From a virus, in the IMG/VR virus record IMGVR_UViG_3300027759_000473, positions 1 to 21,965 of that record: DNA of 21,965 bases; one strand, given 5' to 3'. The position numbers and the translations under genes are program-made. Positions 6,404 through 21,579 of this stretch are shown here, one piece after another. The notes under the pieces are model-generated. The model was not told the DNA's origin. It did not search any database and was given only the letters and a program-made list of their open reading frames with translations. Positions within the stretch are counted from its first letter, which is position 1. Each line of letters opens with the position of its first letter.

Positions 6404-6407
6404 AGGA

Positions 6408-6425
6408 AAGGGCCCTAAGGCCCTT
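6408..6425 (-). terminator. Hairpin, probable terminator between the 79-residue gene and gp13
   Basis: The coding strand forms a 7-bp GC-rich stem AAGGGCC/GGCCCTT with a 4-base loop, 23 bases after the stop of the 79-residue gene. The T tract after it is weak (TTCCTTA), so termination may be partial. It sits directly before a late promoter, a common terminator-promoter order. The stem is symmetrical and could act on either strand. Confidence 0.6.
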
Positions 6426-6447
6426 GTAGATTATTCTTTAATATAAC

Positions 6448-6687
6448 TTAAGCTACATTAGAGGATATGATCGCTGTAGATGTTTCTCGGTCTGCTTTTA
6501 AATATCCTGTGCATGTAATATTGTAATCATTACCATTCTTATCTTTTTCACTCTTTACTGGTACTGTAATATCTAGGTTTTTAAAAAGATATTCCTTTTC
6601 ACCTTCAAATACACGCCAGACATGATCCATAGTACCTCGTCCGGTCTGACCTCTGGATTTATTAAACCTTATATGATAGGTGTTCAT
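6448..6687 (-). CDS. Small conserved phage-type protein of unknown function (79 aa)
   Basis: Function not recognised. A 79-residue soluble protein without signal peptide or membrane segment. It reads as a small beta-rich fold: HVWRVFEGEKEYLFKNLDI near residues 22-40, then a polar turn (SEKDKNGND) and YNITCTGYLKADRETSTAII. It overlaps the oxygenase stop by four bases (ATGA), so the two are probably translated together and may act together. I recall similar short proteins in marine T4-like phages near gene 13 but cannot confirm this here. Alternatives are a small virion protein or a partner of the oxygenase. Confidence 0.75.
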   Translation of the reverse strand: MNTYHIRFNKSRGQTGRGTMDHVWRVFEGEKEYLFKNLDITVPVKSEKDKNGNDYNITCTGYLKADRETSTAIISSNVA

Positions 6688-7488: not shown

Positions 7489-7986
7489 TTAAATAATTTC
7501 AACCCATTGCCATGTAATAAAATTAAATCTATATTGTTTATTATCAAATGGTTTTGCTGGGGTATCTTTCCAGTTATTATCTGCACCACTCCATACTGTT
7601 AAGATACCAAGACCTAATTTATTAGGATTTTGTTCTGGGCGCACAATAGGAGGAACCATAGTACATGTAGCTTCATCTAATGTCCATGCTGACCAATTTT
7701 CACCGTATTCTTGAGCAGCAAATGCATTGCGAGTTGTTTGTTGCTTAGCTGTTTTTTCTTCAGCAGTCATTTCACGTAATGACCAAGTATCTTTCCAAAC
7801 CCCGTCTACTTTAGCATAAACAGGTGTTTCAGATTCTAAAATTTGGTATACACCAGGTACAGGACGTTCTACCCTGGTAAATGGTTCCCAATGCGCTGGG
7901 ATAGAACCAAATGCCTGTAGAAGATTGCTTTCAAGGGCAGGGTGATTTTTTACCTGACCGTTTTCTGTTTCGATATAAAGATTCAT
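7489..7986 (-). CDS. Phage accessory protein, possibly tail fibre assembly related (165 aa)
   Basis: Not firmly recognised. A 165-residue soluble protein beginning MNLYIETENGQVKNHPALES. The middle (PVYAKVDGVWKDTWSLREMT, then AEEKTAKQQTTRN at about 84-96) resembles the Leu/Met-T-x-E-E-K helix found in phage tail fibre assembly chaperones. It ends in a Trp/Tyr-rich YRFNFITWQWVEII. It carries its own AGGAG ribosome site and comes directly after three long adhesin-like genes. A role in folding or attaching those fibres is plausible from context but not shown. It could also be a minor virion protein. Confidence 0.6.
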   Translation of the reverse strand: MNLYIETENGQVKNHPALESNLLQAFGSIPAHWEPFTRVERPVPGVYQILESETPVYAKVDGVWKDTWSLREMTAEEKTAKQQTTRNAFAAQEYGENWSAWTLDEATCTMVPPIVRPEQNPNKLGLGILTVWSGADNNWKDTPAKPFDNKQYRFNFITWQWVEII

Positions 7987-8001: not shown

Positions 8002-10296
8002 TTAAGATCCGCTAACACATGTTGATGGGAATGAACGAGAAGCTCCAGGCCATACAATTCGAACTGCTCCAGATCCACCCGAGCCTCCTGTATAGGTGTT
8101 GTAGTTTGATCCACCGCCGCCGCCGCCAAAATTTCCACCAGGAGCGTTGATAGCCTGTTCAACTGAGTATCCTCCGTTTTGGCCATCGCTTCCACCTCTA
8201 CCATATGTACGAACAAGCTGTTGACCGGAACAGTTATAAAAACTAGCTAATGCTTGTCCGCCACTACAGCCTTGACCGAATAAGCCTACACCACCGCCTC
8301 CAGCGCCTCGTGAACCACTAGTGGCACCACCGCCACCGGCACCGCCTGTACCTGCAGCTCCTGTATTGCGTGAACTTCGACCACCATCACCTCCAGTACC
8401 GGCATAACCACCAGCACCACCGCCTCCACCACCACAGTTACCAGGGTTTGAAACACCTGTAGCACCACCAGAACCACCGTTGCCGCCTCCAGTACCTGCG
8501 TAAGTACCTGCAGCTCCTTTAGCGGATTGTGCTGTACCAGGTTGAGTAGGAACACTACCATTACCACCTCCACCACCTTTTACAACAGATCTAGAACAAA
8601 AATAACTATCACCATTAGTATCTCCAGCGTTAGCAGCACCGACCCTGACAGTATAAAATGCACCACCAGTTATAGCTTGGTTATTTTTATAACCTAAGCC
8701 GCCACCGCCACCGCCACCGCCACCGTAACCATTACAGCAGTTAGCTAATGTGGTACCACCGCCTCGGCCACCACCACCAACGGCCACAATTGATACGGAT
8801 GTTTGACCGGTAGGAGCAACCCAGGTATAACAACCTGTAGTAGAATATGTTACCTCACCCCATGTAGTATTATTTGCTGCTACACAGGTTGAGGGGAATT
8901 GACGTGAAGTACCCGGCCAGACGATACGTAAAACACCTTTACCACCGTTTCCACCTTGACCGCCTACATTATTACATCCTGTATTTGAAAAGTAGCCACC
9001 TCCACCCCCGTGATCTCCTCCCGTACTTTGATTTGCAGAGCCCGAAAGACCTCCACCACCACTAATACCACCTGAACCACCTCCACCCCCGTTATAACCA
9101 GACGCGCCAGCCCCGTTGCAACCTAAACCGTAAATACCAACACCGCCTCCTCCAGGCGCATTACCGCCAGCACCGCCGCCGGCACCTCCTGTACCTGAAG
9201 TACCCGTACCACATGATGAGACACCACCTGCTCCTGAATAACCACCTGCTCCTGAACCACCGTTAGTGCCTCCACCGCCTCCGGCACCACCGTTACCGCC
9301 GCCATCACCTGTAAATGCTCCACCGGCTCCGCCTGATGAAACGCCAGTTTTACCACCAAAACCAATAACTGTAGAAGTATTAAACGATGTATTTCCTCCG
9401 TTGATACCGTCTTGAAGACCACCCGCGCCTACTACAACTGCATAAGAGGTACCAGGAACAACAGTGAAATTGTTCTTGTAGCCTAGACCACCACCTGATC
9501 CAGGGCGACCGGCTCCTCCTCCTGCGCCTCCTCCACCAACAGCTACCACAGATACTGAGGTAACCCCTGTAGGTGCAACCCAGTTATATGAACCAGGGAC
9601 TCTGTATACTGCAGCGCCAATATTCTGAGCTTCAATACTATTAGATGCCGCGCTGGCCGCGCTTGTACCAATTGCGTTGGTAGCTGTAACAGTAAATGTG
9701 TATGAAGTACCAGCTGTCAACCCGCTCACTGTGATTGTTCCTGAACCAGCCTGGCTCAATGTACCAGTAACACTACCTGGTGATGAAGTCGCTGTATAAG
9801 ATGTAATCGTTGAGCCGCCGTTGCTTGCAGGAGCAGTGAATGGTACAGATGCTGTAGTACCCGATACAGTTGCAGTACCTATTGTAGGTGCACCTGGTAC
9901 ATTAGCCGTTGATACACTGTTTGATGCTGCACTTGAACCACCTGATCCTGCACCATTGGTTGCAGTCACTGTAAATGTATACGTAGTATTTGCTGATAAA
10001 CCTGTCACACTGACTGGAGACGTTGTATTTGAAGCTGTAATTCCTCCTGGTGAAGAGGTTGCTTGGAAACTTGTAATTGCCGCGCTACCTATATTTGTAG
10101 GTGCAGTAAAAGTAACACTTGCTGTTAATACAGAAATATTAGCAGTACCAATTGTAGGTGCACCTGGGCTTGTAGGCCAGATGCCTTGTTTGGTAAGGTT
10201 AGCTGCATCTTCAAGTGTCCAGACACCCTTAGCTGATGTAGCTGTAGGTGCTGAAGGATTACTGGTGATTACTCCACCGGGATATTTTTTACTCAT
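8002..10296 (-). CDS. FN3 and glycine-rich adhesin-like tail protein (764 aa)
   Basis: Probable receptor-binding or decorative tail fibre protein. Order: an N-terminal tether (residues 1-43) with a GVWT...WP motif; two fibronectin-III-like domains (about 44-128 and 134-221), each opening with PGAPTIGTA and closing with a TYTFTV-type strand and SAASNS; then two glycine-rich domains (about 228-470 and 484-761). Each glycine-rich domain starts with a W-V-A-P-T-G strand and VSVVAVGGGG-type core, passes LGYKNN, and ends with RIVWPG followed by FPSTC. Long G-G-G runs recall polyglycine-II adhesin tips such as gp38 of T2-like phages; that comparison is inference. Twelve Cys all lie after residue 360. 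The start follows the preceding chaperone stop by 3 bases with only a weak AAGG site. Confidence 0.85.
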   Translation of the reverse strand: MSKKYPGGVITSNPSAPTATSAKGVWTLEDAANLTKQGIWPTSPGAPTIGTANISVLTASVTFTAPTNIGSAAITSFQATSSPGGITASNTTSPVSVTGLSANTTYTFTVTATNGAGSGGSSAASNSVSTANVPGAPTIGTATVSGTTASVPFTAPASNGGSTITSYTATSSPGSVTGTLSQAGSGTITVSGLTAGTSYTFTVTATNAIGTSAASAASNSIEAQNIGAAVYRVPGSYNWVAPTGVTSVSVVAVGGGGAGGGAGRPGSGGGLGYKNNFTVVPGTSYAVVVGAGGLQDGINGGNTSFNTSTVIGFGGKTGVSSGGAGGAFTGDGGGNGGAGGGGGTNGGSGAGGYSGAGGVSSCGTGTSGTGGAGGGAGGNAPGGGGVGIYGLGCNGAGASGYNGGGGGSGGISGGGGLSGSANQSTGGDHGGGGGYFSNTGCNNVGGQGGNGGKGVLRIVWPGTSRQFPSTCVAANNTTWGEVTYSTTGCYTWVAPTGQTSVSIVAVGGGGRGGGTTLANCCNGYGGGGGGGGGLGYKNNQAITGGAFYTVRVGAANAGDTNGDSYFCSRSVVKGGGGGNGSVPTQPGTAQSAKGAAGTYAGTGGGNGGSGGATGVSNPGNCGGGGGGAGGYAGTGGDGGRSSRNTGAAGTGGAGGGGATSGSRGAGGGGVGLFGQGCSGGQALASFYNCSGQQLVRTYGRGGSDGQNGGYSVEQAINAPGGNFGGGGGGSNYNTYTGGSGGSGAVRIVWPGASRSFPSTCVSGS
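9869..9897. repeat. 29-bp exact repeat, copy 1 (FN3 start)
   Basis: This stretch, encoding the APTIGTA opening of the second FN3-like domain of the 764-residue protein, is identical to 12927-12955 in the 745-residue gene. Near matches occur around 10141-10168 and 14020-14043. The identity at DNA level, where protein-level constraint would allow synonymous change, points to recent exchange or duplication. Confidence 0.85.
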
Positions 10297-10299
10297 AAC

Positions 10300-10782
10300 T
10301 TACGCCTTAACTGGCCATTCAATAACCCATGGGAATAACGGTTGTGAAGGTACATCACGTAGGGCTTGACGGTATGTTGTCCAAGATGCAGATACACTGT
10401 CAGCAATATCTTTGGCTTGAGTCCAATCAGTCTTGGCTAATAATTCATCTCGAGTTTGACGAACTCTGACTGCTTGCTCAGCATCTTTTCTAGCTTTATA
10501 AGCAACCATTTGTTGGGCAGCTGTACCTTCATCATTGTCTGTAAAAACCGGGCCAATTGAGTATTTTGTATACCACTTACCATGAACTTCTTCTACACCG
10601 GTATAATAACTATATTCGTATGGAGGAGTCGGTGTACCCTGGGGACCTTAAAATACAACATCAGCACCATTAGCATTTAGCCACACTTCAGTCAACATAT
10701 CTGGTAGTTGTAAATTAGAATATGTTCGACGAAATTCATCGACATACATTGCCTGTCCAGTTTCTCTAATTCTTATTTGCAT
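10300..10782 (-). pseudogene. Tail assembly chaperone gene interrupted by an in-frame TAA
   Basis: An ATG at 10782 with a good AAGGA site opens MQIRIRETGQAMYVDEFRRT, but the frame meets TAA at 10650-10648 after 41 codons (ending NGADVVF). The same frame continues open (GPQGTPTPPYEYSYYTG, then VHGKWYTKYSIGPVFTD) to a stop at 10300-10302. The C-terminal part, TRDELLAKTDWTQ then WTTYRQALRDVPSQPLFPW and EWPVKA, is the hallmark of phage tail assembly chaperones of the Phage_tail_APC type. Without the stop the protein would have 160 residues. A single base change at 10650 would restore Glu (GAA) or Gln (CAA). It could be a true nonsense mutation, a sequencing error, or re-initiation at ATG 10509 giving a 69-residue C-terminal product, though no ribosome site lies close to that ATG. 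It sits among the fibre genes it would serve. Confidence 0.85.
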
Positions 10783-10792
10783 TTTTTATTCC

Positions 10793-13030
10793 TTAAGCTA
10801 TCGCTAAAAATATGTATGTTCCGCCAGATGCATTGATAGCAGCTGGGGCAGTTGAACTTAACTCAAAGCCTGTTGCGGCTGCGTCAATGTAATCGGTATT
10901 GGTTACTTCAGCGGCTGTGCTGTTGAGCAGCAGGTAGGGGTCATTACCAGCAATAATTCCTCTGGTGGTATCCCAGACGTACCAGTCACCCGTTGAGTCT
11001 GCGCGCTTAATGAGAACAAACCTCGCCCCTGCTGTAAAGCCACAGTTGATGGTCTGGGTTGTGCCGTTGCCTGTGTAGCTACCTACTTTGGATACGCCAG
11101 CGCAGGTTGCAAATAGGTACATTACATATCTAGCACCGCTTTGATTAATAGACGCAACATTTCCATCAACGTTAACAATTGTGCTAGTAAATGCACTACC
11201 AAAAAAAGAAGCATTACTTGCAACTGCGGCACTGTCATTTAATACAAGATATTTGCCTGTACCTAAAATACCTGTAGCTCCAACAATCCAGCTTTGACTT
11301 GCCCCTGTTCTATTTTTAATAATTACTAATTCAGGGACGACACCAAGATTATGCGACAGGTCTTGATAAGAGTTTGCCCCTGCATAGGCGACTACGTCCA
11401 TAAACGATGGCGCGCGAGCAAAACTATAGCTTACTAAATTACCTGAGCCACCCCAAGAACTGGCAATTGAAAACCCTGTTTGCTTATCCCAAGACCAACC
11501 TGACCCAATACTTCCCCCACTTGATTCGCTAGAGTCAGAATACGCAAGCATTCCCCTTTGAGTAAGAGCGCTAGCAAGTAATCCAATATTGGTAGTTTTT
11601 CTTTGAGCAAGAAGTGCTTCACCTTTAAAATCGGAGGTTATCGTTAAGGGGAACGAAGCACTTGAATCGGCAACAGCAAACACCTTAGTCGCATCTGTAG
11701 GCACTTTCATCGGACCACGGCGTATGGCTACGTACAGGAATGTGCTACCTGAATCATTAGGATATCCCACTCCTGACACAGCAAAACCAGTTGCTGTTGG
11801 CGATGGACCGTAGTTATTAGTTGCTTCATAGTCAGTAGTATGTGGGTTAAGTTCATTATATAAACTTGAACCATCGCTTTCTCGCCATGCTCCTCGATAC
11901 ATATCTGCAATAGCCCATTTACCAACTTGATTTATTGTCTTAATCATCACCCATTGCGGCTCAAAGCCAAGCGTTACCTGATTTGGCGTGGTTGTCCCGC
12001 CAGTACCTGAATAAGTCCCACAGCTAACCACACTATCTGTACCAGACAGGCCAAAGCCTCCTGCGTTGTGGGCGAATAAGTAGGCTACATAGGTACGACC
12101 AGCCACGTTAGCGTTATCGCCAACTGTAAAAACTGTGCTTGTTGGGGCGACACCGCCAGAATTACCCCAGTTTTGACCACTAGTAGCTGCAGCTGTACTG
12201 TTTAAAACAATATACGAATTTGTAGCTGCCAAAGAGCGATGGTAAACAAACCAATCTTGTACATTGCTAGTGCATTTAACTATTAAACAGCCGGGTATTG
12301 ACCCAAGGCTATGAGAGATTTGTCGGCTTAACGCATCATTTCCCGTATAAGTCACAATATCAAAGAACTTGGCTTGCTTGCGGAATGTCCACGATACGTG
12401 CTGTTTTGTTGATGCGTTTAATTCTCCATCAGTACCAATTGAAAAACCTGATGTAGTGAAAGCACTAACTCGCCCTGCATCATTTACTTCGGCGTCAGTA
12501 CCACTAGTTCTTAATGCTTTGGTTGCTCCTCTTGCACTATCAACCAATACATGAGGTTCAGCAGTGCTGCTTCTCTTTTTAATCCAAACCAACCCACCAT
12601 TAGTAGATAAATCAATATTATTTGTAATAGTCTGTGCTGAACCTGTACCAGTATAAAGATACGTGCTGAATACATCTTCTATATAATCAGCAGGGGTTAC
12701 ACTGTTAGAGGCAGCACTCGAAGGACCTGTACCCGATGCATTAATGGCTCTTACTGTGAATGTATAAGCTGTACCAACAGTTAAACCAGAAACAGTAACT
12801 GGAGATGAAGCACCTGTACCAGTTAACCCTCCAGGACTTGAGGTAACGATATACCCTGTTATAGTTGCAGGAAAGCCCGATGAGCTAGGAGCTGTGAAGG
12901 TAACAGATGCTGTAGTTCCAGATACTGTTGCAGTACCTATTGTAGGTGCACCTGGAAATGTAGGCCATGTGCTTGCGCCTTTTGCTTGATATTGCTGGCT
13001 AGCTGTCCAAAGTCCTGAAAAATTAGGCAT
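10793..13030 (-). CDS. FN3 plus six-module tail fibre-like protein (745 aa)
   Basis: Probable tail fibre or adhesin. Order: a short tether with GLWT...WP (residues 7-23), one FN3-like domain (about 26-112, APTIGTATVSGTTASVTFTA to SAASNS), then six modules of roughly 100 residues at about 122-218, 224-320, 337-438, 444-538, 545-640 and 649-745. Modules share a Y-T-G-N/T-G opening, a P-x-hydrophobic-V-x-I-K strand, a W with V/A and D/Y-x-x-R-G, a Y-L-x-L-N-S/D-x-A-A strand, a T-G-F stretch and a closing Y-x-x-Y-L/A-F/I-A strand. I recall such repeats from phage fibre proteins of unassigned (DUF) type. The start overlaps the preceding stop as TAATG. By eye the module region is less AT-rich than the terminase-neck genes, suggesting separate origin of the C-terminal part. 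Confidence 0.82.
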   Translation of the reverse strand: MPNFSGLWTASQQYQAKGASTWPTFPGAPTIGTATVSGTTASVTFTAPSSSGFPATITGYIVTSSPGGLTGTGASSPVTVSGLTVGTAYTFTVRAINASGTGPSSAASNSVTPADYIEDVFSTYLYTGTGSAQTITNNIDLSTNGGLVWIKKRSSTAEPHVLVDSARGATKALRTSGTDAEVNDAGRVSAFTTSGFSIGTDGELNASTKQHVSWTFRKQAKFFDIVTYTGNDALSRQISHSLGSIPGCLIVKCTSNVQDWFVYHRSLAATNSYIVLNSTAAATSGQNWGNSGGVAPTSTVFTVGDNANVAGRTYVAYLFAHNAGGFGLSGTDSVVSCGTYSGTGGTTTPNQVTLGFEPQWVMIKTINQVGKWAIADMYRGAWRESDGSSLYNELNPHTTDYEATNNYGPSPTATGFAVSGVGYPNDSGSTFLYVAIRRGPMKVPTDATKVFAVADSSASFPLTITSDFKGEALLAQRKTTNIGLLASALTQRGMLAYSDSSESSGGSIGSGWSWDKQTGFSIASSWGGSGNLVSYSFARAPSFMDVVAYAGANSYQDLSHNLGVVPELVIIKNRTGASQSWIVGATGILGTGKYLVLNDSAAVASNASFFGSAFTSTIVNVDGNVASINQSGARYVMYLFATCAGVSKVGSYTGNGTTQTINCGFTAGARFVLIKRADSTGDWYVWDTTRGIIAGNDPYLLLNSTAAEVTNTDYIDAAATGFELSSTAPAAINASGGTYIFLAIA
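12927..12955. repeat. 29-bp exact repeat, copy 2 (FN3 start)
   Basis: Identical to 9869-9897; encodes the opening strand of the FN3-like domain in the 745-residue protein. A further 14-base exact match lies just beside both copies (ACAGATGCTGTAGT on the plus strand). Confidence 0.85.
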
Positions 13031-14103
13031 TATAAATCCCCTGTATTAGTTGATGGGAATGAGCGTGTGTTACCTGGCCAAATAATTCGGACTGCACCTC
13101 CTGCACCTGGAGAATCTGCAGCACCTGTTCCGCCGCCGTATGCGCCACCTGCTGATGTAGAGGTACCACCAACACCACCAGAACCACCACCTCCTCGGGT
13201 TCTTACCCCACCGGCTGCTCCATTGGATCCTGCTCCGAGAATACCTACACCACCGCCACCCCCGGCATTACCTGCACAGCCGTTATTACCGCCTCCGCCT
13301 CCTGCACCTCCTGAACCTGCTGTAGCAGCGCTGCCCCCAGCACAAGGAAATGCCCCATTACCACCATTACCAGAATAACCTCCGGCGCCACCACCACCAG
13401 CGTACCCTCCATTGCTATAACCACCGGTACCGCCATTACCACCACCATCCCCAGTACCACCGCTACCACCTGATGTAGGGGTACCACTAGCAGAACCACC
13501 AGAAGAACCACCACCATAAGCAACAACTGTTGTGGTGTTAAATGTAGACACACCACCGTTAACTGTAGGGCTTGCTGTACCACCAGCGCCAACCACTACC
13601 GCGTATGTATTACCAGGTACCACTGTAATATTGTTTTTATAACGTAACTCTCCACCAGCACCACCTCTACCGTAACCAGCACCACCTGCGCCTACAGCAA
13701 CAACTGATACTGAAGTAACTCCGGTAGGAGCAACCCAAGAATAAGAACCAGAAGTTGTGTATGCTTGTTGCCCGCTAATTGAAGCAGTAGCGCTATTAGA
13801 AGCTAAACTTGAAGGACCTGGGCCATATGCGTTGGAAGCTTCAGCCTTAAATGTATAAGAAGACCCTGTAGTAAGACCACTTACCACCAGAGTATTAGAG
13901 GCACCTATTTTTGTAAACGCACCACAGCTGGAATAAACTTTATAAGAAGATATAGCCCCACCACCCACACAAGCAGGCGCGGTGAATGTTACAGATACAC
14001 AACTATTTCCGCCTGCTGTAGCAGTACCAATTGTAGGTGCATTTGGTACTTTCAGGGCGTTATAACCCGGTAGTTTAATACCAGCTTGATAGCGGTTTGA
14101 CAT
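13030..14103 (-). CDS. FN3 and glycine-rich adhesin-like tail protein (357 aa)
   Basis: A half-size relative of the 764-residue protein. N-terminal tether MSNRYQAGIKLPGYNALKVP, one FN3-like domain (about 20-107, APTIGTA to SLASNS) and one glycine-rich domain (about 114-357) that opens with SYSWVAPTGVTSVSVVAVGA, passes LRYKNNITVVPG and ends with VRIIWPGNTRSFPSTN. Five Cys are present, three of them in the FN3 domain (residues 34, 45, 60), unlike the other copies. An AGGA site precedes the ATG. Its stop is overlapped by the start of the 745-residue gene (TAATG), so the two are probably coupled. The repeat architecture suggests a surface adhesin on the tail; no receptor can be inferred. Confidence 0.83.
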   Translation of the reverse strand: MSNRYQAGIKLPGYNALKVPNAPTIGTATAGGNSCVSVTFTAPACVGGGAISSYKVYSSCGAFTKIGASNTLVVSGLTTGSSYTFKAEASNAYGPGPSSLASNSATASISGQQAYTTSGSYSWVAPTGVTSVSVVAVGAGGAGYGRGGAGGELRYKNNITVVPGNTYAVVVGAGGTASPTVNGGVSTFNTTTVVAYGGGSSGGSASGTPTSGGSGGTGDGGGNGGTGGYSNGGYAGGGGAGGYSGNGGNGAFPCAGGSAATAGSGGAGGGGGNNGCAGNAGGGGGVGILGAGSNGAAGGVRTRGGGGSGGVGGTSTSAGGAYGGGTGAADSPGAGGAVRIIWPGNTRSFPSTNTGDL

Positions 14104-14115
14104 TACTATCCTAAA

Positions 14116-14484
14116 TTAACTAATTACTTCATATGATAAGAAGATCTGTACTGCAGATGCTGTAGTAGAAACCGCCTTAATACTGGTATCTTCTTCCATG
14201 TAAAAGCCTGTAGACTTATCGGTTACGATAAGTGAGGCACCAGAAGGGATAGAGACTTGAGATACTAAGAAGGTTGCTGTACCGGTACCGGCTGCCGCTC
14301 TATTGTATTCTACGTTAGCAGTAGCGGCAGAGTTGCTGTAATTTGCAAGAACAATATTATTGATCTTGATACAGTTCCCGGAACTTGCAGCATTAACAAG
14401 CACAAGAGCGTTAGAGGTTGTTAAGGTATTACCAAAGCTTTTTGCCTGGATACTACTAACGTTGACAATATTAGGTATGGCCAT
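14116..14484 (-). CDS. Small beta-rich virion-type protein (122 aa)
   Basis: Function not established. A 122-residue protein composed of short predicted beta strands: KSFGNTLTTSNALVLVNAAS, then CIKINNIVLANYSNSAATAN, FLVSQVSIPSGASLIVTDKS and a closing VQIFLSYEVIS. Small all-beta proteins with this I-P-x-G-x-S-L-x-V pattern are common near tail fibre genes of marine phages and are likely virion surface or decoration proteins. It has its own AAGGAA ribosome site, no signal peptide or membrane segment, and lies between short fibre genes and the FN3 adhesins. Confidence 0.72.
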   Translation of the reverse strand: MAIPNIVNVSSIQAKSFGNTLTTSNALVLVNAASSGNCIKINNIVLANYSNSAATANVEYNRAAAGTGTATFLVSQVSIPSGASLIVTDKSTGFYMEEDTSIKAVSTTASAVQIFLSYEVIS

Positions 14485-14510
14485 TTAAATTTCCTTAATT
14501 AATTTATTAT

Positions 14511-14804
14511 TTATCCACCGAATACTAGTGACATAGCAATCGATTTACCGGTTGATGCACCGCCTAGGGCGTTGAGGGCAGCAGTAGCGGATGTTTGACC
14601 GGTCCCGCCATTTGCAATTGGTAAGGCTCCTGTGACGCCTGTCGTCAGAGGTAGCCCAGTAGCGTTAGTAAGCACACCAGAAGCAGGGGTACCTAATGCT
14701 GGAGTAACTAATGCTGGAGCAACTAATGTTTTATTGGATAATGTAGTAGTACTTGTCGCTGTAACAATATTTGTTGGTGTAATAATCGATGATAGTGTTG
14801 TCAT
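14511..14804 (-). CDS. Short tail fibre-like protein with GKSIA C-terminal tag (97 aa)
   Basis: A 97-residue fibre-like protein. Residues 22-60 contain [33 protein letters not shown] and TGVTG, the same unit that forms the 65-residue arrays of the large fibre. Then comes [20 protein letters not shown], a linker widespread in phage tail fibres, and the C-terminus [12 protein letters not shown], shared with two neighbouring proteins. An AGGAGG ribosome site sits at the end of the upstream gene, 7 bases of spacer away. It is too short to be a stand-alone long fibre; it may trimerise as a small appendage or be a leftover of a longer one. Confidence 0.75.
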
Positions 14805-14811
14805 TTATTTT

Positions 14812-15021
14812 TTATCCTCCTAGGACCAGAGAGACTGCTATAGCTTTACCTAAAGTAGCAACACCAGTTAAGTTAGAACCAGATCCAGAAAACGATGCTG
14901 CTGAAATTACTCCAGAAGCCGTAACATTACCGGTAATAGTACCAGAAGCAGCAATATTGGCTACGTTGGTAATATTACGCGTATCATCAATTACTGTTGT
15001 GTTATTTATTTTTATTGGCAT
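14812..15021 (-). CDS. Very short fibre-like protein with GKAIA C-terminal tag (69 aa)
   Basis: A 69-residue protein: MPIKINNTTVIDDTRNITNV, then a run of short strands (ASGTITGNVTASGVISAASF) and SGSGSNLTGV, ending GKAIAVSLVLGG. The N-terminal half matches the stalk-like repeats at the base of many phage fibres. No strong Shine-Dalgarno site is visible before the ATG; instead a late promoter box ends only five bases upstream, so a transcript from that promoter would be nearly leaderless. Read-through transcription from the 241-residue gene could provide a normal leader. It may be a minor appendage or a donor cassette for longer fibres. Confidence 0.68.
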   Translation of the reverse strand: MPIKINNTTVIDDTRNITNVANIAASGTITGNVTASGVISAASFSGSGSNLTGVATLGKAIAVSLVLGG

Positions 15022-15026
15022 ATACT

Positions 15027-15034
15027 TATTTATA
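15027..15034 (-). promoter_or_regulatory. T4-type late promoter box abutting the 69-residue gene
   Basis: An exact TATAAATA on the coding strand in the 18-base gap between the 241-residue gene stop and the 69-residue gene start. The box ends five bases before the ATG, so the expected start site lies at about the initiation codon. Either the message is leaderless, the promoter serves the genes further down (97- and 122-residue proteins), or the match is accidental. Confidence 0.55.
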
Positions 15035-15039
15035 CTTTC

Positions 15040-15765
15040 TTAACCACCGAAAACAATGGCCATAGCAATAGATTTACCTGTTGTAACACCTGGTGTGACA
15101 GCTACGTTAGAGGCAGAAGTTATTCTACCTTGTGCATCTACAGTGAGTGACGGAATAAAGGAAGCATTACCATATGTAGCTGCAGTTACACCAGTAGGTT
15201 GTATCTGGGAAGCAATAATATTACCGGTAATTTGTATATTAGAAACACTTGCAATTTGACCACTAGTAATAAGACCGGTGATTTGCGTATTGGCAACACT
15301 AGCAATTTGTCCGCTTGTAATAAGACCAGTAATCTGCGTATTGGCGACACTAGCAATTTGTCCGCTCGTAAATAGTCCTGTAATTTGTGTATTTGATACA
15401 CTAGCAATCTGTGCACTGGTAATGAGACCAGTTATATTTGAGTTTGCTACTTGAGCGGTAACATTAGAGGCGCTAGTTATTCTACCATATGCATCTACTG
15501 TAAATACACCCTCAACTGTAGCACCACCATATGTACCAGCAGCAACACCTGAAGTAGCTAATCTTGAAACACTTAATGTACCGGATAAAATATTAGTTGC
15601 GTTAGAGGCATATGTTACTGAAGCTAATTCAGATCCCCCGGCTGTCGACCCATCGTGTACTCTGATAGTACTGTTACTGGTATTGACCGATAGCTCACCA
15701 GCAGCTCCTGTAAAGCTATTGTTTTGAGCTGTTGTCCCGCGTCTAAATTGTACTTGTGTAGGCAT
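15040..15765 (-). CDS. Tail fibre-like protein with Mtd-type N-terminus and 17-residue repeats (241 aa)
   Basis: A trimer-type fibre protein. The N-terminus (about residues 1-48, VQFRRGTTAQNNSFTGAAGE, then VNTSNSTIRVHDGST) matches the N-terminal domain shared by phage tropism determinants (Mtd) and many fibre bases. Residues 78-104 carry a TYG...FTVDAYGRITSASNV motif; 111-189 hold about 4.6 tandem copies of a 17-residue unit (ITGLITSGQIASVANTQ type); a second TYG...LTVDAQGRITSASNV motif follows, and the protein ends GKSIAMAIVFGG. The repeats probably form a beta-structured shaft. No C-type lectin domain is present, so the Mtd likeness is limited to the base. Its ribosome site is a modest CGGA. 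Confidence 0.8.
   Translation of the reverse strand: MPTQVQFRRGTTAQNNSFTGAAGELSVNTSNSTIRVHDGSTAGGSELASVTYASNATNILSGTLSVSRLATSGVAAGTYGGATVEGVFTVDAYGRITSASNVTAQVANSNITGLITSAQIASVSNTQITGLFTSGQIASVANTQITGLITSGQIASVANTQITGLITSGQIASVSNIQITGNIIASQIQPTGVTAATYGNASFIPSLTVDAQGRITSASNVAVTPGVTTGKSIAMAIVFGG
15199..15435 (-). repeat. Tandem 51-bp repeats in the 241-residue fibre gene
   Basis: About 4.6 copies of a 51-base unit encoding ITGL(I/F)TS(A/G)QIASV(A/S)N(T/I)Q. Copies two to four are close at DNA level, so the array could expand or contract by slippage or recombination and change shaft length. Confidence 0.85.
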
Positions 15766-15780
15766 TTATTTTTCCGTATA

Positions 15781-16254
15781 TTATAACACTGCCAAATCTG
15801 CTGTAGTAATACTACCCCTGGGTTCCATACAGTCATAGGCTGTAGACAGGGCAACATTAAATGCATCAGTAGAGCTGGTGAGCAAATCCCCATAATCGGT
15901 ATTCACAGAACTACCAGGAAAAGCAGATACCGTACTGTTTGTAAAACCTATAGCGCTGGCACCAGCAGCAGTTGTCTGTGTAGAACCATCGGAGAATTGT
16001 ACCCCTCCGCTGGTTGAAATTATAACGTTACCAGTAACCACATTACCAGTAACAGTAACATTACTTAATGTAGAATTTATGACTGCTGCAGTTGCCCGCG
16101 CATTAGAAAAATATAAATTGCTTCCTTCTGGAACAACACTGGTACTTAATGTAGCAGATGTTACATTCCACGCGTTTCCATTATAAGTCCAGGTCTTACC
16201 ACTGAACGTATAGGTTGCATTAGCACTCGGCGCTGAAGGGAAATTTAAAGCCAT
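15781..16254 (-). CDS. Short fibre-like protein with the adapter of the large fibre (157 aa)
   Basis: The first ~55 residues (LNFPSAPSANATYTFSGKTW, TYNGNAWNV, then EGSNLYFSNARATAA) parallel the N-terminus of the 1417-residue fibre (LNFPSSPALNDTYSFGGKTW, VYNGSAWAL, EGTNLYFTNARSRAA). The middle is Thr/Val-rich with GNVVTGNVIIS and GVQFSDGSTQTTAAG, and the C-terminus is unrelated (SVNTDYGDLLTSSTDAFN onward). The shared adapter suggests both proteins dock at the same type of site. It has no clear Shine-Dalgarno site: the ATG follows a terminator T run and GAAAGAAT. Confidence 0.75.
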   Translation of the reverse strand: MALNFPSAPSANATYTFSGKTWTYNGNAWNVTSATLSTSVVPEGSNLYFSNARATAAVINSTLSNVTVTGNVVTGNVIISTSGGVQFSDGSTQTTAAGASAIGFTNSTVSAFPGSSVNTDYGDLLTSSTDAFNVALSTAYDCMEPRGSITTADLAVL

Positions 16255-16262
16255 ATTCTTTC

Positions 16263-16296
16263 AAAAAAATCAGGGAGGATTTTATTCACTCCCTGA
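16263..16296 (-). terminator. Intrinsic terminator after the large fibre gene
   Basis: The coding strand has an 8-bp stem TCAGGGAG/CTCCCTGA (16296-16289 and 16277-16270) with an 11-base loop, followed at once by seven T (16269-16263). It is a textbook rho-independent terminator 15 bases after the 1417-residue gene stop. A late promoter lies between the stop and the stem. Confidence 0.88.
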
Positions 16297-16298
16297 TA

Positions 16299-16306
16299 TA
16301 TTTATA
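16299..16306 (-). promoter_or_regulatory. T4-type late promoter overlapping the terminator
   Basis: An exact TATAAATA on the coding strand between the large fibre stop and the terminator stem. With the usual start about six bases past the box, transcription would begin near 16293, inside the 5' arm of the stem. New transcripts would lack the first three stem bases and keep only a 5-bp stem, while read-through transcripts would form the full hairpin. It is placed to drive the 157-residue gene and those following. Confidence 0.75.
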
Positions 16307-16311
16307 ACGTA

Positions 16312-19300
16312 TTAAGGATGTGTCTTTTTGTATGCTTCGAATTCAGCTTTCAATTCTTTAATGGCTTCAACCAGAACACCTACCACGTTATTGTATCTGA
16401 TACCTAAGTATCCATTATCATCAGCAGAAACAATCTCAGGCAATACTGCTTGAACTTCTTGAGCAATTAAACCAATTGCTTTACCATTTCCTTCTTTCCA
16501 GTCAAAGGTAACACCGCGAAGTGCATTAACAGTATCTAGTGCAGATGTTACAGTCTTAATGTTTTTCTTCAATCTCTTATCAGAAGACGAATTCAAGTCA
16601 GTTGCAGTCAATTGACCTGTAGAAGGGTTAAATGTTAACTTAGAAGATGATACTTGTTCTGTAACTGCTCCAGATGTACCATTTGCAAACATAATATATC
16701 TGGTTGCATTAGTTGATGTATCATCTGTAACAGTAATAAAGTTAGCAATGTTAGCTGTTAAGTTGTTAGCTGTTCCAGAAGCATTAGTCAGAACAATTGC
16801 GCTCGGTGTACCGAGATCTTGACCGGATACAGCAGAGGCAATCATTGCATTAGATATTGCTCCAGATGAACCTGCAACAGTGGTTACTTTAGCAGCAGTA
16901 TAGGTCGTAGCAATTGACGAACCTTGCCATGTACCAGAACTAATCGTTCCAACAGAGGTTAAGTTTGATGCAAGTACGTTAGGACCTAATCCTGTAGCGC
17001 TAATAACTGGGGTATTATTAATCTCATAAACCTTACCGGAAGCAAGATCAAAGTCAGTACTAGATGTCCAAGATGTATTAGCATGTACATAGTTAAATGT
17101 AGCACCTGCGCCATCGACAGTGATACCGGCACCATCGGCAGCTGCGCTATTAGCAGCACCTTTGGCAATTAAAATATTCTTATCGGTAATTTCTGTATTA
17201 GTTGTTTGAATAGCTGTTAGGGTACCAGTAACAGTCAGGTTGGCCAAACTTACAGTCTGACCAGTCAATGAAGAAGCAATCATGGCATTAGAAATTGCAC
17301 CAGTTGAACCACCAACTGACTCTACCAATGAACTAACAATGGTACCAGTTGCCTGTTCAACCCACTGTGAACTTGTACCATCGTTGAAGTACAAATATGT
17401 TTTACCATCATCTGCATCAATCCATTGATCACCAATGTTAGGAGAGCCAGGAGCACTTGCAGATACAGTAACGTTAGCAATATTGGCAAAATCAAATACA
17501 CCAGTACTGCTATTATATTGACCTTTACTGCCATTAATAGATAGAGCAGCTCTTGCATTAGTATCAGTATACTGAGTGATCGTAGAAGAAATTACTCCTG
17601 TACCGCTATCATAACCGATACCAGTACCAGCACTTACAGAACCACGGGCTCTTGCCTGGGTAAAGTACTGATTAGTACCCTCAGCAACGTTAGAAGTAGT
17701 CAGTACACCGGAAGATGTAATTGCAGAAGCTAACTGTGCATTAGATACAGCACCGGTTGCCCCGCCAACGGAAGATACACCAGAAGTAATAGCAACGTTA
17801 GAAGCAGAAGTAATTCTACCATATACGTCAACTGTAATAACTGGAATGTTTAATGTACTACCATATGTGGTAGCAGTAACACCAGATTGTGCATTAGCAG
17901 CAAGCAAGGTAGTTTGATTTGCACCTAAACCACTAACCCCTGTGCTTATTGGCAATCCAGTTGCATTGGTAAGAGTAGCTGATGAAGGCGTTCCGAGTGC
18001 TGGGGTTACCAAGGTTGGGCTAGTTGCAAATACTAACGCACCTGAGCCTGTTTCATCTGTAACAGCAGCTGCAAGATTAGAACTCGATGGAGTTGCCAAG
18101 AACGTTGCAACGTTTGCACCAAGACCGCTGACACCAGTACTGATTGGTAAACCAGTTGCATTAGTCAATACACCGGCTGAAGGTGTACCAATGTTAGGTG
18201 TTACCAATACTGGGTTATTACTTAGTACAACATTACCAGAACCGGTCTCATCAGTTACCACAAATGCAAAGTTAGCGCTTGTTGGAGTAGCCAAGAACGT
18301 TGCAACGTTTGCACCAAGACCGCTGACACCAGAACTAATAGGTAACCCAGTTGCGTTGGTTAGTGTAGCATAACTTGGTGTACCAATATTTGGTGTTGTA
18401 AGGACGGGGCTAGTAGCAAATACTAGCGAACCTGAACCGGTTTCATCAGAGATTAGAGTAGCAAGTTCGGCAGATGTTGTTGAAGCAAATTGTGATAGAC
18501 CGTTAGCAGTTTCAGCAAGCCCTGTAACAGCGCCAGTTCTACCATTAACCGCTGTAACCTTAGCGGCCGTATAAGCAGTACCGATTTCTGTACCATTCCA
18601 TACACCAGTAGTAATAGTTCCAACTGATGTAAGGTTAGAATTAACAACGGTTGGGCCAAGGCCAGTTCTGCTTAAAACTTGTCCGTTATTTGCTTTAATT
18701 ACTTTATTAATAGCTAGATCTATATCCTGGCTAGAAGTAAATGATGTTGTGGCATGTACGTAGTTAAAGGTTGCATTAGCGCCTTCAATTGTGATACCGG
18801 CACCATCGGCGGCCAGGCTATTAGCAGCTCCTTTGGCAATTGTAATATTCTTATCTGCAACTTCAAGCGTTGTAGAAGACACAGTTGTTGTAGTACCTTG
18901 AACAAACAAATTACCAGCAATAACCATATTATTTAATATGTTAGTATTACCAGTAGCAGCACCAATGTTAACTGTAGTACCTGCTCCAGCAAAATTAACT
19001 GTAGTAGCATTGGTATTGATTATGTCAAAAGAACCGCTAGGTGTAGTTATTGATGTGTTAAATGTAGGGCTTTGATTAAATACTAAAAACCCGGTACCAG
19101 TTTCATCAGTAATTAATGCGCGTAAATTAGCACTTGTTGGTGTTTGACCTAAGAATGTAGCAACGTTAGCTCCTAAACCGCTGATACCAGTACTAACTGG
19201 TAATCCAGTTGCATTAGTTAATGTGACAGCAGATGGTGTTCCAAGGTTAGGAGTAACCATAACCGGTGAATTAGAGAACAGAATATTACCTGTTCCTGTT

Positions 19301-20565
19301 TCATCAGTTACTGCAGATGCAAGGTTAGCAGATGAGGGTGTTGCCAAGAATGTGGCAATGCCAGATCCTAAACCGCTAACACCTGTACTAATTGGCAAAC
19401 CAGTTGCTGATGTCAATACAGCATATGAAGGTGTACCAATATTAGGCGTTAACAGAACCGGGCTTGATGAGAATACTAAAGAACCTGAACCTGTTTCATC
19501 GGTAATAGCAGATGCAAGATTTGCACTTGATGGGGTAGCTAAGAACGTTGCCACTCCAGTTCCTAAACCGCTGACGCCAGTACTAATTGGTAAACCAGTT
19601 ACATTGGTCATTACCCCGGAAGCCGGTGTTCCAAGTGCTGGAGTTACCAATGTTGGTGAAGTAGCAAATACTAATGCACCAGATCCGGTTTCATCAGAAA
19701 TAACACCAGCTAATTCAGCTGAAGTGGTAGCAGCAAATTGTGATAAGTTACCAGTAGTAGTGGCAATTGATGTAATTGCACCTGTTGAACCATTTACAGA
19801 TGTAACACCAGCATTGGTAATAGTAGGTGTTGCACCTTCATTACCCAGACCGGAAATTGTAATACCAGTACCAGCAACCAAGTTACCGACATATGCACCA
19901 GTAGTATCTCTACCAAGTTCTACAGAATTAGGTTGAATACTTGCAGAGAAAGAACCACCATCGGCAGTACCAATTGTAAATGTATTACCAGAAGCACTGA
20001 ACGTTGATACTCCGGCTACGTTAACGTTAGCGGCAGATGTAATTCGACCATAAGTATCAACTGTAAATACTGGTACCTTAGATGCACCACCGTATGTGTT
20101 AGCAGTAACACCAGAAACGCTTAATGCAACATTACCAGTTGCAGAACTGTATGTAATTGGACCACCGAAAGCGGCATCAATCGATGCTCTTGCTCTTGCA
20201 GTGGTGAAGTAAAGATTTGCGCCTTCTGCAACATTACCTGTTGTCAGAACGCCGGAGCTTGTAATACCAGATGCCAATTGTGCATTGGATACAGCACCTG
20301 TTGCACCACCAACCGATGTAACACCACCGGTAATTGTAATAACTCCGGTAGAATTATCATAAGAACCAGCACCTGCAACTGAAATCGCAGCTCTAGATCT
20401 TGCATTAGTAAAATAAAGGTTGGTACCTTCAGTTACTGTAGTTGTGGATAATGTTGTGGATTGTAGAGCCCAAGCAGAACCATTATACACCCATGTTTTT
20501 CCACCAAAGGAATAGGTATCATTAAGTGCTGGGCTTGATGGAAAATTTAAAGTTGGTCCTGACAT
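16312..20565 (-). CDS. Large tail fibre/spike with C-terminal S74 self-cleaving chaperone (1417 aa)
   Basis: Probable receptor-binding fibre. Order: adapter LNFPSSPALNDTYSFGGKTW (6-25) and NLYFTNARSR (49-58); NLYFTTARAR (117-126); TVDTYGRITSAANV (168-181); four-copy array of a 65-residue DETGSG unit (281-503); module LEVADKNITIAKGAA...NLTSVGTI (566-684); three-copy array (697-888); TVDVYGRITSASNV (911-924); IGDQWID module (1044-1050); second ITDKNILIAKGAA module (1124-1240); chaperone (1328-1417). The last domain (SSDKRLKKNIKTV, then IGLIAQEVQAVLP and a final coiled coil IKELKAEFEAYKK) is the S74 intramolecular chaperone. Ser1328 and Lys1333 have the five-residue spacing of the endosialidase catalytic dyad, so release of ~90 residues after trimer folding is expected. 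AAGGA precedes the ATG; a late promoter lies 38 bases upstream. No enzymatic tailspike domain is seen. Confidence 0.93.
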   Translation of the reverse strand: MSGPTLNFPSSPALNDTYSFGGKTWVYNGSAWALQSTTLSTTTVTEGTNLYFTNARSRAAISVAGAGSYDNSTGVITITGGVTSVGGATGAVSNAQLASGITSSGVLTTGNVAEGANLYFTTARARASIDAAFGGPITYSSATGNVALSVSGVTANTYGGASKVPVFTVDTYGRITSAANVNVAGVSTFSASGNTFTIGTADGGSFSASIQPNSVELGRDTTGAYVGNLVAGTGITISGLGNEGATPTITNAGVTSVNGSTGAITSIATTTGNLSQFAATTSAELAGVISDETGSGALVFATSPTLVTPALGTPASGVMTNVTGLPISTGVSGLGTGVATFLATPSSANLASAITDETGSGSLVFSSSPVLLTPNIGTPSYAVLTSATGLPISTGVSGLGSGIATFLATPSSANLASAVTDETGTGNILFSNSPVMVTPNLGTPSAVTLTNATGLPVSTGISGLGANVATFLGQTPTSANLRALITDETGTGFLVFNQSPTFNTSITTPSGSFDIINTNATTVNFAGAGTTVNIGAATGNTNILNNMVIAGNLFVQGTTTTVSSTTLEVADKNITIAKGAANSLAADGAGITIEGANATFNYVHATTSFTSSQDIDLAINKVIKANNGQVLSRTGLGPTVVNSNLTSVGTITTGVWNGTEIGTAYTAAKVTAVNGRTGAVTGLAETANGLSQFASTTSAELATLISDETGSGSLVFATSPVLTTPNIGTPSYATLTNATGLPISSGVSGLGANVATFLATPTSANFAFVVTDETGSGNVVLSNNPVLVTPNIGTPSAGVLTNATGLPISTGVSGLGANVATFLATPSSSNLAAAVTDETGSGALVFATSPTLVTPALGTPSSATLTNATGLPISTGVSGLGANQTTLLAANAQSGVTATTYGSTLNIPVITVDVYGRITSASNVAITSGVSSVGGATGAVSNAQLASAITSSGVLTTSNVAEGTNQYFTQARARGSVSAGTGIGYDSGTGVISSTITQYTDTNARAALSINGSKGQYNSSTGVFDFANIANVTVSASAPGSPNIGDQWIDADDGKTYLYFNDGTSSQWVEQATGTIVSSLVESVGGSTGAISNAMIASSLTGQTVSLANLTVTGTLTAIQTTNTEITDKNILIAKGAANSAAADGAGITVDGAGATFNYVHANTSWTSSTDFDLASGKVYEINNTPVISATGLGPNVLASNLTSVGTISSGTWQGSSIATTYTAAKVTTVAGSSGAISNAMIASAVSGQDLGTPSAIVLTNASGTANNLTANIANFITVTDDTSTNATRYIMFANGTSGAVTEQVSSSKLTFNPSTGQLTATDLNSSSDKRLKKNIKTVTSALDTVNALRGVTFDWKEGNGKAIGLIAQEVQAVLPEIVSADDNGYLGIRYNNVVGVLVEAIKELKAEFEAYKKTHP
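16846..17196 (-). repeat. Duplicated fibre module, distal copy
   Basis: Encodes residues 1124-1240 of the large fibre: ITDKNILIAKGAANSAAADG, then GAGATFNYVHANTSWTSS, TGLGPN, SNLTSVGTI and YTAAKVT. It parallels residues 566-684, encoded at 18514-18870, over its whole length with the same order of motifs. Confidence 0.85.
17902..18477 (-). repeat. 195-bp repeat array, three DETGSG units of the large fibre
   Basis: Encodes three units with DETGSG at residues 707, 772 and 837. The unit is about 65 residues: [55 protein letters not shown]. The array runs out at residue 888, where ANQTTLLAANAQ replaces the expected ATFLATP. The protein region is otherwise uncut. Confidence 0.9.
18514..18870 (-). 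repeat. Duplicated fibre module, proximal copy
   Basis: Encodes residues 566-684 of the large fibre: LEVADKNITIAKGAANSLAA, then GANATFNYVHATTSFTSS, TGLGPT, SNLTSVGTI and YTAAKVT. It sits between the two 65-residue arrays and parallels the copy encoded at 16846-17196. Confidence 0.85.
19057..19725 (-). repeat. 195-bp repeat array, four DETGSG units of the large fibre
   Basis: Encodes DETG motifs at residues 291, 356, 421 and 487, spaced 65, 65 and 66 residues. The final unit has GQTPTSANL in place of ATPSSANL (one extra residue) and breaks off after the NQSPTFNT segment. Units differ at many synonymous and some amino-acid positions, so this array is not very recent. Confidence 0.9.
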
Positions 20566-20602
20566 TTTATTCCTTATTGGTTGGAAATTATCGTTATTCG
20601 TT

Positions 20603-20610
20603 TATTTATA
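20603..20610 (-). promoter_or_regulatory. T4-type late promoter for the large fibre gene
   Basis: An exact TATAAATA on the coding strand in the 58-base gap between the 192-residue gene and the 1417-residue gene, ending 37 bases before the ATG. No strong terminator is seen in the gap; only a weak 5-bp AGAGA/TCTCT stem lies upstream of it. Confidence 0.8.
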
Positions 20611-20623
20611 GTAACAGAGACCG

Positions 20624-21202
20624 TTAAATCTCTATCCATTGATGACTTGTACCATCGTTTACAAAAAGATATGCTATTGCATTGCCAGCCTCAATCCACT
20701 TATCTCCAATATAAGGGTCAGCGGGAGCAGACAAAGATACGGTTACATTGGCAGCGTTTATCGATATTATACCGGTTGCGCTGTCATATGAACCTTTGCC
20801 GTTTACATTACCAGTTGCAATAGAGATTGAAGCTCGTGATCTCGCATTGGTAAAGTATAAATTGGTTAATTCAATTATATTAGCTGTTGTGAGTAGCCCT
20901 GAGGAGGTAATACCTGCAGCCAACTGTATGTTAGATACATTACCTGTAACTCCGGCTACTGTATAGTTTAAATCAACGTTTGCTGCTGCATACGCAAGGG
21001 TTGCAATTGTGGTTGCTGTATTAGCTTGATTATACGCAGATAAAGTATACGAAGCTAGTGAAAGAGGATAACCTCCAACAGTAGCGCCGTCATGAACTAC
21101 GGCTACCTTTTTATCTAAATCGACAGTAATCTCACCGGATGCTCCTGTGAACAAACTGTGTGAGTAAGTATTACCGCGTCTAAATTGTGTTTGAATAGCC
21201 AT
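20624..21202 (-). CDS. Short tail fibre-like protein with Mtd-type N-terminus (192 aa)
   Basis: N-terminal domain (about 1-48: MAIQTQFRRGNTYSHSLFTG, then ASGEITVDLDKKVAVVHDGA) is the same Mtd-type fibre base as in the 241-residue protein. Residues 50-80 are Ala-rich. Then follow GNVSNIQLAAGITSSGLLTT and ELTNLYFTNARSRASIS, as in the large fibre, and the protein ends with NVTVSLSAPADPYIGDKWIE and VNDGTSHQWIEI, a module found inside the large fibre (about 1031-1070). The start overlaps the stop of the 125-residue gene (TAATG), and no clear Shine-Dalgarno site is present, so translation is probably coupled. Confidence 0.8.
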   Translation of the reverse strand: MAIQTQFRRGNTYSHSLFTGASGEITVDLDKKVAVVHDGATVGGYPLSLASYTLSAYNQANTATTIATLAYAAANVDLNYTVAGVTGNVSNIQLAAGITSSGLLTTANIIELTNLYFTNARSRASISIATGNVNGKGSYDSATGIISINAANVTVSLSAPADPYIGDKWIEAGNAIAYLFVNDGTSHQWIEI

Positions 21203-21579
21203 TAAATAGAGCCGTAGTCTATTGGGGAAATAGCAGTTGAAATTGTAGCGTCATAAATGAAGCCGTAATCAAATTCAAAATTGTTATTATTACCCGATGC
21301 AGTAGAAGAAATAACTCCGTCTGCAATTGTTATATTTGTGCCGGCGGTAAAGGCCGCTCTTGCCCTAGCATTATTAAAATATAAGTTTGAACCTTCAATA
21401 ACATTACTTGTAGTTCCTGCTCCAATAACTACAACATTACCATTACCGTCTTTAGAATAGATGATCTTATCGGTAAGGTTAACTACCGGTTCACCAACCA
21501 AAACATTAGCCGCAACTGGTACCGAACCAGCAGTAAATGACCGTTTAAGTTGAATATCTGTAGTTGGTCCGGCTGCCAT
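21202..21579 (-). CDS. Short fibre-like protein (125 aa)
   Basis: The first ~50 residues (TTDIQLKRSFTAGSVPVAAN, then GEPVVNLTDKIIYSKDGNGN) form the small fibre-base domain seen in many phage tail proteins, a cousin of the Mtd-type N-terminus. EGSNLYFNNARARAAFT (about 63-79) is the shared linker. The C-terminus, NNFEFDYGFIYDATISTAIS then PIDYGSI, is Asp/Tyr/Phe-rich and may bind a partner or receptor. It has a weak ribosome site (AAAGAA) and is translationally coupled to the next gene. Probable minor tail appendage protein; exact place unknown. Confidence 0.75.
   Translation of the reverse strand: MAAGPTTDIQLKRSFTAGSVPVAANVLVGEPVVNLTDKIIYSKDGNGNVVVIGAGTTSNVIEGSNLYFNNARARAAFTAGTNITIADGVISSTASGNNNNFEFDYGFIYDATISTAISPIDYGSI

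What the first reader, a model, noticed from the sequence alone, without database searches (positions are those of the whole stretch)
8002..21579. Combinatorial fibre locus built from a shared set of modules
About ten adjacent genes reuse the same parts: Mtd-type base (241 and 192 aa), LNFPS adapter (157 and 1417 aa), NLYF-x-NAR linker (125, 157, 192, 1417 aa), GRITSASNV motif (241, 1417 aa), IGDxWI/NDGTS module (internal in 1417, terminal in 192 aa), [11 protein letters not shown] unit (97, 1417 aa), FN3 and glycine-rich domains (764, 745, 357 aa). The short proteins could be stand-alone appendages or a donor bank for remodelling the large fibre.
Basis: partly seen in the sequence, partly recalled or inferred. 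Interest (0 to 1): 0.65.

Follow-up and report, generated by a model that had tools for sequence, protein, structure and literature searches.

The report
Swappable fibre slots in aquatic phage

Summary
Composition-corrected BLAST recovers the shared modules (Mtd_N base, LNFPS adapter, NLYFxNAR, GRITSAS, IGDxWI, GTPAS unit, FN3); residue-shuffled controls give no hits. One detail is wrong: the 745-aa protein is FN3 plus tandem DUF7483, not glycine-rich. The locus is the gp13-proximal part of the known hypervariable 'host recognition cluster' of pelagimyophages/cyanomyophages (PMC7029224). About 25 close relatives (gp13 mostly 87-99% aa) show ordered fibre slots. Each slot keeps a conserved N-terminal header; distal parts are replaced. 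Change points fall at residue 53 of the 157-aa slot, directly after NLYFSNAR, in 5 relatives, at residue 48-49 of the 241-aa slot (Mtd_N end) in 6, and at FN3 ends. On the gp13 side the border lies at a hairpin/TATAAATA block: one pair is 98.3% identical on one side and unrelated on the other. Sharing between non-equivalent slots (S74, second FN3) and fusions of neighbouring slots occur between phages. A donor bank inside this genome is not supported: only 7 of 187 pieces match best within it. Two missed genes were found, one a tail-assembly-chaperone gene with a premature stop. The 165-aa gene is probably a chaperone for the glycine-rich adhesins.

The parts
21202..21579 (-). 125-aa protein, slot 1: fibre-type N-terminus plus NLYFNNAR linker; 121-877 aa in relatives, sometimes carrying the 192-aa protein's distal part
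20624..21202 (-). 192-aa protein, slot 2: Mtd_N base (first 35-41 aa identical in two relatives), NLYFTNAR, terminal IGDxWI/NDGTS module
20603..20610 (-). TATAAATA late-promoter core 45 nt before the 1417-aa gene
16312..20565 (-). 1417-aa large fibre, slot 3: LNFPS adapter, two arrays of 65-aa GTPAS units, duplicated segment, C-terminal S74 intramolecular chaperone (residues 1328-1379); 688-2009 aa in relatives
16299..16306 (-). TATAAATA late-promoter core 52 nt before the 157-aa gene
15781..16254 (-). 157-aa protein, slot 4: LNFPS adapter and NLYFSNAR; identity change point at residue 53 in 5 relatives; 157-1342 aa in relatives
15040..15765 (-). 241-aa protein, slot 5: Mtd_N base (change point at residue 48-49 in 6 relatives), 17-aa repeats, GRITSAS, C-terminal GKSIAMAIVFGG
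15027..15034 (-). TATAAATA late-promoter core before the 69-aa gene
14812..15021 (-).
14511..14804 (-). 97-aa protein, slot 6: GTPAS unit inside, C-terminal [12 protein letters not shown]; usually 72 aa in relatives
14116..14484 (-). 122-aa conserved all-beta protein (86-98% in most close relatives, about 57% in G002); model pLDDT 91.6, weak jelly-roll-like matches
13030..14103 (-). 357-aa FN3 + glycine-rich adhesin with C-terminal cap VRIIWPGNTRSFPST, slot 8
10793..13030 (-). 745-aa FN3 + tandem DUF7483 protein, slot 9
10300..10782 (-). Interrupted tail-assembly-chaperone gene (PF16778 in relatives) with in-frame TAA at 10648-10650; intact in four relatives that carry the tandem-DUF7483 gene
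8002..10296 (-). 764-aa adhesin, slot 10: two FN3, two glycine-rich domains each ending in the WPG..R.FPST cap
7489..7986 (-). 165-aa predicted tail-assembly chaperone linked to the glycine-rich cap
6684..7403 (-). 239-aa 2OG-Fe(II) oxygenase, present only in some relatives
6396..6426 (-). Border block upstream of gp13: GC hairpin (AAGGGCCTTAGGGCCCTT) and TATAAATA; right edge of variability
5411..6370 (-). gp13 (first backbone gene; backbone continues gp14-gp18)

Best explanation
This is the gp13-proximal end of the host recognition cluster of an uncultured T4-like myovirus, built as an ordered row of fibre slots. Each slot opens with a conserved header: RBS, often a T4-type late promoter, and about 50-110 residues of slot-specific anchor (Mtd_N, LNFPS-NLYFxNAR, or FN3). 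The header is followed by an exchangeable distal part. Distal parts carry their own folding aid: a C-terminal S74 domain, or a neighbouring chaperone gene (PF16778 type after tandem DUF7483; the 165-aa type after glycine-rich caps). Recombination between related co-infecting phages replaces whole distal parts or downstream gene blocks. Borders lie in the headers, in shared linkers and in the hairpin/late-promoter block before gp13; neighbouring slots are occasionally fused. Shown: the mosaic pattern, its borders, the linkage. Inferred: that anchors dock to baseplate sites, that distal parts bind receptors, that co-infection is the route, and that the 165-aa protein is a chaperone.
For: Backbone gp13-gp18 is mostly 87-99% identical while slot lengths vary from 157 to 1342 aa (slot 4), 122 to 721 (slot 5) and 688 to 2009 (slot 3). 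Headers are 81-100% identical on average in the first 25-50 aa of slots 2-5, then drop. Change points: residue 53 after NLYFSNAR in G001, L040, L123, L167, L168 (55 in G003); 48-49 at the Mtd_N end in G002, G006, L040, L124, L277, L309; FN3 ends in slots 8-10. L167 and G003 are 98.3% identical over 2042 bp up to about 58 bp before gp13 and at background level beyond it; to the left they align again at 91% up to codon 54 of slot 4. Incongruence: L123 has a closer gp13 (97%) than L124 (92%) or G002 (94%) but a different slot-4 allele, which L124 and G002 share with the window. TATAAATA: 101 on the coding strand, 85 intergenic although 3.2% of sequence is intergenic; 8 on the other strand. Fused slots 1+2 and 4+5. 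Chaperone pairing.
Against: Part of a header/distal identity step could reflect stronger constraint on anchors rather than recombination; the very unequal lengths, discrete alleles and the L167/G003 junction argue against this as the whole story. All sequences are metagenome contigs, so some junctions could be mis-assemblies; several loci recur in separate samples (G006/L162/L238; L126/G009; L120/L039 identical over 4512 bp; L124/L125). No virion data show that the proteins are in particles. Host and receptors are unknown.
Confidence: 0.82

Rival explanations
1. Donor bank: the short genes are a reservoir from which the large fibre of the same genome is remodelled by intragenomic recombination.
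For: Modules of the short genes recur inside the large fibre. In G006 a slot-4 piece is 81% identical in DNA to its own large fibre over 180 bp.
Against: In the window only 7 of 187 pieces match best inside the genome, and one 69-bp patch exceeds 80% DNA identity. The G006 slot-4 piece is closer (88%) to the large fibre of another phage, G003. S74 of the large fibre and of short slots are separate lineages.
Confidence: 0.06
2. Fast divergence without recombination: anchors are constrained, distal parts evolve quickly under host pressure.
For: Anchor domains are conserved in every slot. Zaragoza-Solas et al. 2020 judged divergence of the cluster gradual in their closest pair, at 72% ANI (PMC7029224).
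Against: Distal parts are often either nearly identical or unalignable at similar backbone distance, lengths jump by over 1000 aa, and L167/G003 switches from 98% to background at one point.
Confidence: 0.08
3. A diversity-generating retroelement or inversion switch varies the Mtd-like proteins.
For: Mtd_N domain in two proteins, as in Bordetella phage BPP-1.
Against: No reverse transcriptase in 11 related records, no long inverted repeats, and the Mtd match is confined to the N-terminal anchor.
Confidence: 0.02

Closest known systems
Host recognition cluster (HRC) of pelagimyophages and cyanomyophages (Zaragoza-Solas et al. 2020, PMC7029224)
   Same: Hypervariable island with tail fibres and Mtd-type domains, upstream of the neck genes and downstream of a large VrlC-position baseplate gene in T4-like aquatic phages
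   Different: The paper saw divergence as gradual, from a pair at 72% ANI. Here pairs with 97-98% identical backbone show replacement at module borders, slot headers and chaperone pairing
T-even distal tail fibre adhesin swaps at conserved motifs (Tetart et al. 1998; from memory, and as cited in PMC7468147)
   Same: Short conserved motifs act as recombination points that exchange receptor-binding parts
   Different: There the distal adhesin locus; here about ten parallel slots with three anchor types
Flexible gene modules of cryoconite phages (Bellas et al. 2020, PMC7468147)
   Same: Near-identical cores with homologous variants shuffled per module
   Different: There metagenomic-island gene variants; here borders resolved to residues inside fibre genes
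Tail fibre plus cognate chaperone modules: Pam3 gp24-gp25 (PMC9608196), Alteromonas A5/V22 (PMC10579305)
   Same: Fibre with glycine-rich tip and a dedicated chaperone (Pam3); fibre and chaperone shared together between phages (A5/V22)
   Different: Here two chaperone types pair with two tip types in one locus; the 165-aa type has no Pfam or PDB sequence match

Membership tests
Host recognition cluster of pelagi-/cyanomyophages | T4-like backbone gene order gp13-gp14-gp15-gp16-gp17-gp18 next to the island | tested here: met
   Pfam/PHROG hits for gp13-gp16 and gp18 in order; gp17 48% to cyanophages
Host recognition cluster of pelagi-/cyanomyophages | Island hypervariable between related genomes and holding tail fibre genes | tested here: met
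Host recognition cluster of pelagi-/cyanomyophages | VrlC gene at the far border | tested here: inconclusive
   The window ends before it; relatives carry about 1470-2180-aa and 611-615-aa genes there (phrog_358, unnamed), consistent in position and size but not named VrlC by the library
Diversity-generating retroelement target (Mtd) | Reverse transcriptase and template repeat | tested here: not met
   No RVT_1 in 11 related records; most records are fragments
S74 intramolecular chaperone fibre | C-terminal Peptidase_S74 domain | tested here: met
   PF13884 E 1.4e-17 in the 1417-aa protein; matches solved S16 fibre 6f45
S74 intramolecular chaperone fibre | Autocleavage and trimer release | not testable with these tools
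   needs protein
Phage_tail_APC tail assembly chaperone (broken gene 10300-10782) | PF16778 domain | tested here: met
   E 2e-17 and 8e-19 in the L120 and L119 orthologues; window copy has an in-frame stop
Tail assembly chaperone (165-aa protein) | Sequence match to PF16778 or DUF4376 | tested here: not met
   no Pfam or PHROG hit; partial fold matches to annotated chaperones, E 3e-7 with TM about 0.35-0.39
T4 late promoter | TATAAATA upstream of late genes | tested here: met
   85 of 101 coding-strand sites intergenic; activity not tested

The most novel reading that the evidence does not exclude
The cluster is a plug-in array. Slot headers (late promoter plus anchor) are landing pads for recombination, and cassettes of tip plus matching chaperone can be plugged into different slots among phages of one population, so virions display several independently exchangeable adhesins at once.
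Probability: 0.35. Interest if true: 0.68.

Novelty: new variant of a known kind. Interest (0 to 1): 0.5.

Why it matters
It changes a descriptive 'hypervariable island' into a rule-bound array with residue-level borders, and it bears on whether such islands drift gradually or are replaced in blocks. It also predicts which tip goes with which chaperone. That would help annotate host-binding genes in uncultured aquatic phages and makes swap frequency measurable from long reads.

Tried and rejected
Retroelement or inversion switching. Intragenomic donor bank. Co-variation of the 165-aa protein with the glycine-rich cap sequence: none (Mantel r = -0.01; it co-varies with its neighbour the 239-aa gene, r = 0.45), so pairing is by presence, not by matched sequence. 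PDB fold search of the 165-aa model: nothing. The 122-aa model only resembles generic jelly-roll-like proteins. Stop-codon recoding as an explanation of the broken chaperone: TAA ends 16 of the 19 genes checked. DNA matches above 93% to the window: backbone only. No phage record in INPHARED has a match to the 165-aa protein.
Full report
OBSERVATION. Pfam finds Mtd_N (241, 192 aa), S74 (1417 aa), FN3 (357, 745, 764 aa) and DUF7483 (745 aa). The 745-aa protein is not glycine-rich. The large fibre is internally repeated: 195-nt units in two arrays and a 153-nt segment present twice.

CONTEXT. The window is a 21,965-bp virus record with gp13-gp18 in T4 order. No related DNA was found in INPHARED beyond a 131-bp sheath match, and the terminase is at most about 49% identical to cyanophages among the rows listed. 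In longer relatives the fibre genes lie between large baseplate-side genes (phrog_358) and gp13. This is the position of the host recognition cluster described for pelagimyophages and cyanomyophages (PMC7029224).

RELATIVES. Scans of IMG/VR gave about 25 contigs with gp13 mostly 87-99% identical, and a 159,688-bp record (G001) with an 83% terminase. The backbone is colinear and the fibre region is not. Assigning proteins to slots by N-terminus gives strongly varying lengths: slot 4 (157 aa here) reaches 1342 aa, slot 5 (241) 122-721, slot 1 (125) 121-877. Mean identity falls from 100/88% to 37-57% (192 aa), 89/73% to about 50% (157 aa) and 96/88% to 28% and back to 71% at the C-terminus (241 aa). 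The large fibre keeps both ends (81% and 94%). So the short proteins here are short alleles of fibre slots.

BORDERS. Maximum-likelihood change points cluster. In slot 4 they fall at residue 53, the last residue of NLYFSNAR, in five relatives. In slot 5 they fall at residue 48-49, the end of Mtd_N, in six. In slots 8-10 several fall at FN3 ends (residues 106-112 and 221). In slot 1 they fall just behind NLYFNNARARA in two. On the gp13 side, most relatives share a block of hairpin plus TATAAATA, which begins about 55 bp before gp13. L167 and G003 are 23-25/25 identical per 25-bp window right of that point (with few exceptions) and 3-8/25 in most windows left of it; the left flank aligns again (91%) up to codon 54 of slot 4. 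In L042, L168 and L309 the block itself is missing and the last fibre gene abuts gp13.

RECOMBINATION VERSUS CONSTRAINT. L123 is nearer to the window in gp13 (97%) than L124 (92%) or G002 (94%), but only the latter two share the window's slot-4 allele. Distal parts are often either nearly identical or unalignable. This is replacement, not drift. The 2020 study inferred gradual change from a pair at 72% ANI, probably too distant to see single events.

BETWEEN SLOTS. (i) In G006 and G007 the slot-1 anchor carries the slot-2 distal part at 75-76% identity, i.e. fused neighbours. (ii) S74 domains of slots 4 and 5 form one clade (98/96) apart from the large-fibre S74, except L042, which is unresolved. 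(iii) The first FN3 clusters largely by slot (slot 8 95/88, slot 10 95/87), while second FN3 domains from slots 8, 9 and 10 of different phages are intermixed. Within this genome, copies are old. Of 38 pieces scored as best matching another slot, several hit proteins whose own slot is unknown because the contig is cut, so 38 is an upper bound.

PROMOTERS. TATAAATA occurs 101 times on the coding strand of 26 contigs, 85 times between genes (3.2% of the sequence), and 8 times on the other strand. It lies 44-56 nt before the 1417-aa slot, 52-55 nt before the 157-aa slot and usually 33 nt before gp13.

CHAPERONES. Four relatives with the tandem-DUF7483 protein (L120, L119, L034, L016) have directly downstream a 161-168-aa gene, and all four carry PF16778. 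In the window this gene has an in-frame TAA at 10648-10650. The 165-aa gene follows a glycine-rich protein in 31 of 34 loci by glycine content, most ending in a VRI.W...FPST cap (strict pattern 22 of 34). In the close clade, cap and gene co-occur (8 both, 2 cap only, 0 gene only, 11 neither; Fisher p 0.0002; counts), with the caveat that several contigs are cut and that G006 was added by eye. Its model (pLDDT 94.7) partly matches annotated tail assembly chaperones in BFVD, and it has no PDB match. Pam3 gp24-gp25 (PMC9608196) is the nearest studied analogue. Sequence co-variation with the cap is absent.

VERDICT. A well-supported new variant of the known hypervariable fibre island: slot headers fixed, tips exchanged between phages at module borders. 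Adhesin binding, docking and chaperone action are inferred.

Noticed in passing
window 10300-10782, minus strand: Tail-assembly-chaperone gene (PF16778 in relatives) interrupted by an in-frame TAA at 10648-10650; a 69-aa downstream ORF with the domain remains. Real inactivation or assembly error is open.
   Followed up: yes
window 14812-15021, minus strand: Unlisted 69-aa gene; with the 241- and 97-aa proteins it shares the C-terminal signature GK[SA]IA[MV]..V[FL]GG. The GKSIAM core was never found away from a protein's C-terminus in the fetched loci. Function unknown.
   Followed up: partly
window 14116-14484, minus strand: Conserved 122-aa all-beta protein follows the genes with that signature and has distant relatives in Synechococcus phages S-SKS1 and Bellamy and in phage DSL-LC04 (annotated putative lectin).
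   Followed up: partly
window 7489-7986, minus strand: 165-aa family: a tail assembly chaperone candidate tied to glycine-rich caps, without Pfam, PHROG or PDB sequence match.
   Followed up: partly
L124 1-1354 and G007 27807-29160: 100% identical overlap between contigs of two samples with adjacent sample numbers; in this phage the glycine-rich adhesin with its 165-aa gene lies upstream of the 124-aa gene instead of next to gp13.
   Followed up: partly
window 6684-7403, minus strand: 2OG-Fe(II) oxygenase gene between the fibre array and gp13, present only in some relatives; it co-varies with the 165-aa gene.
   Followed up: no
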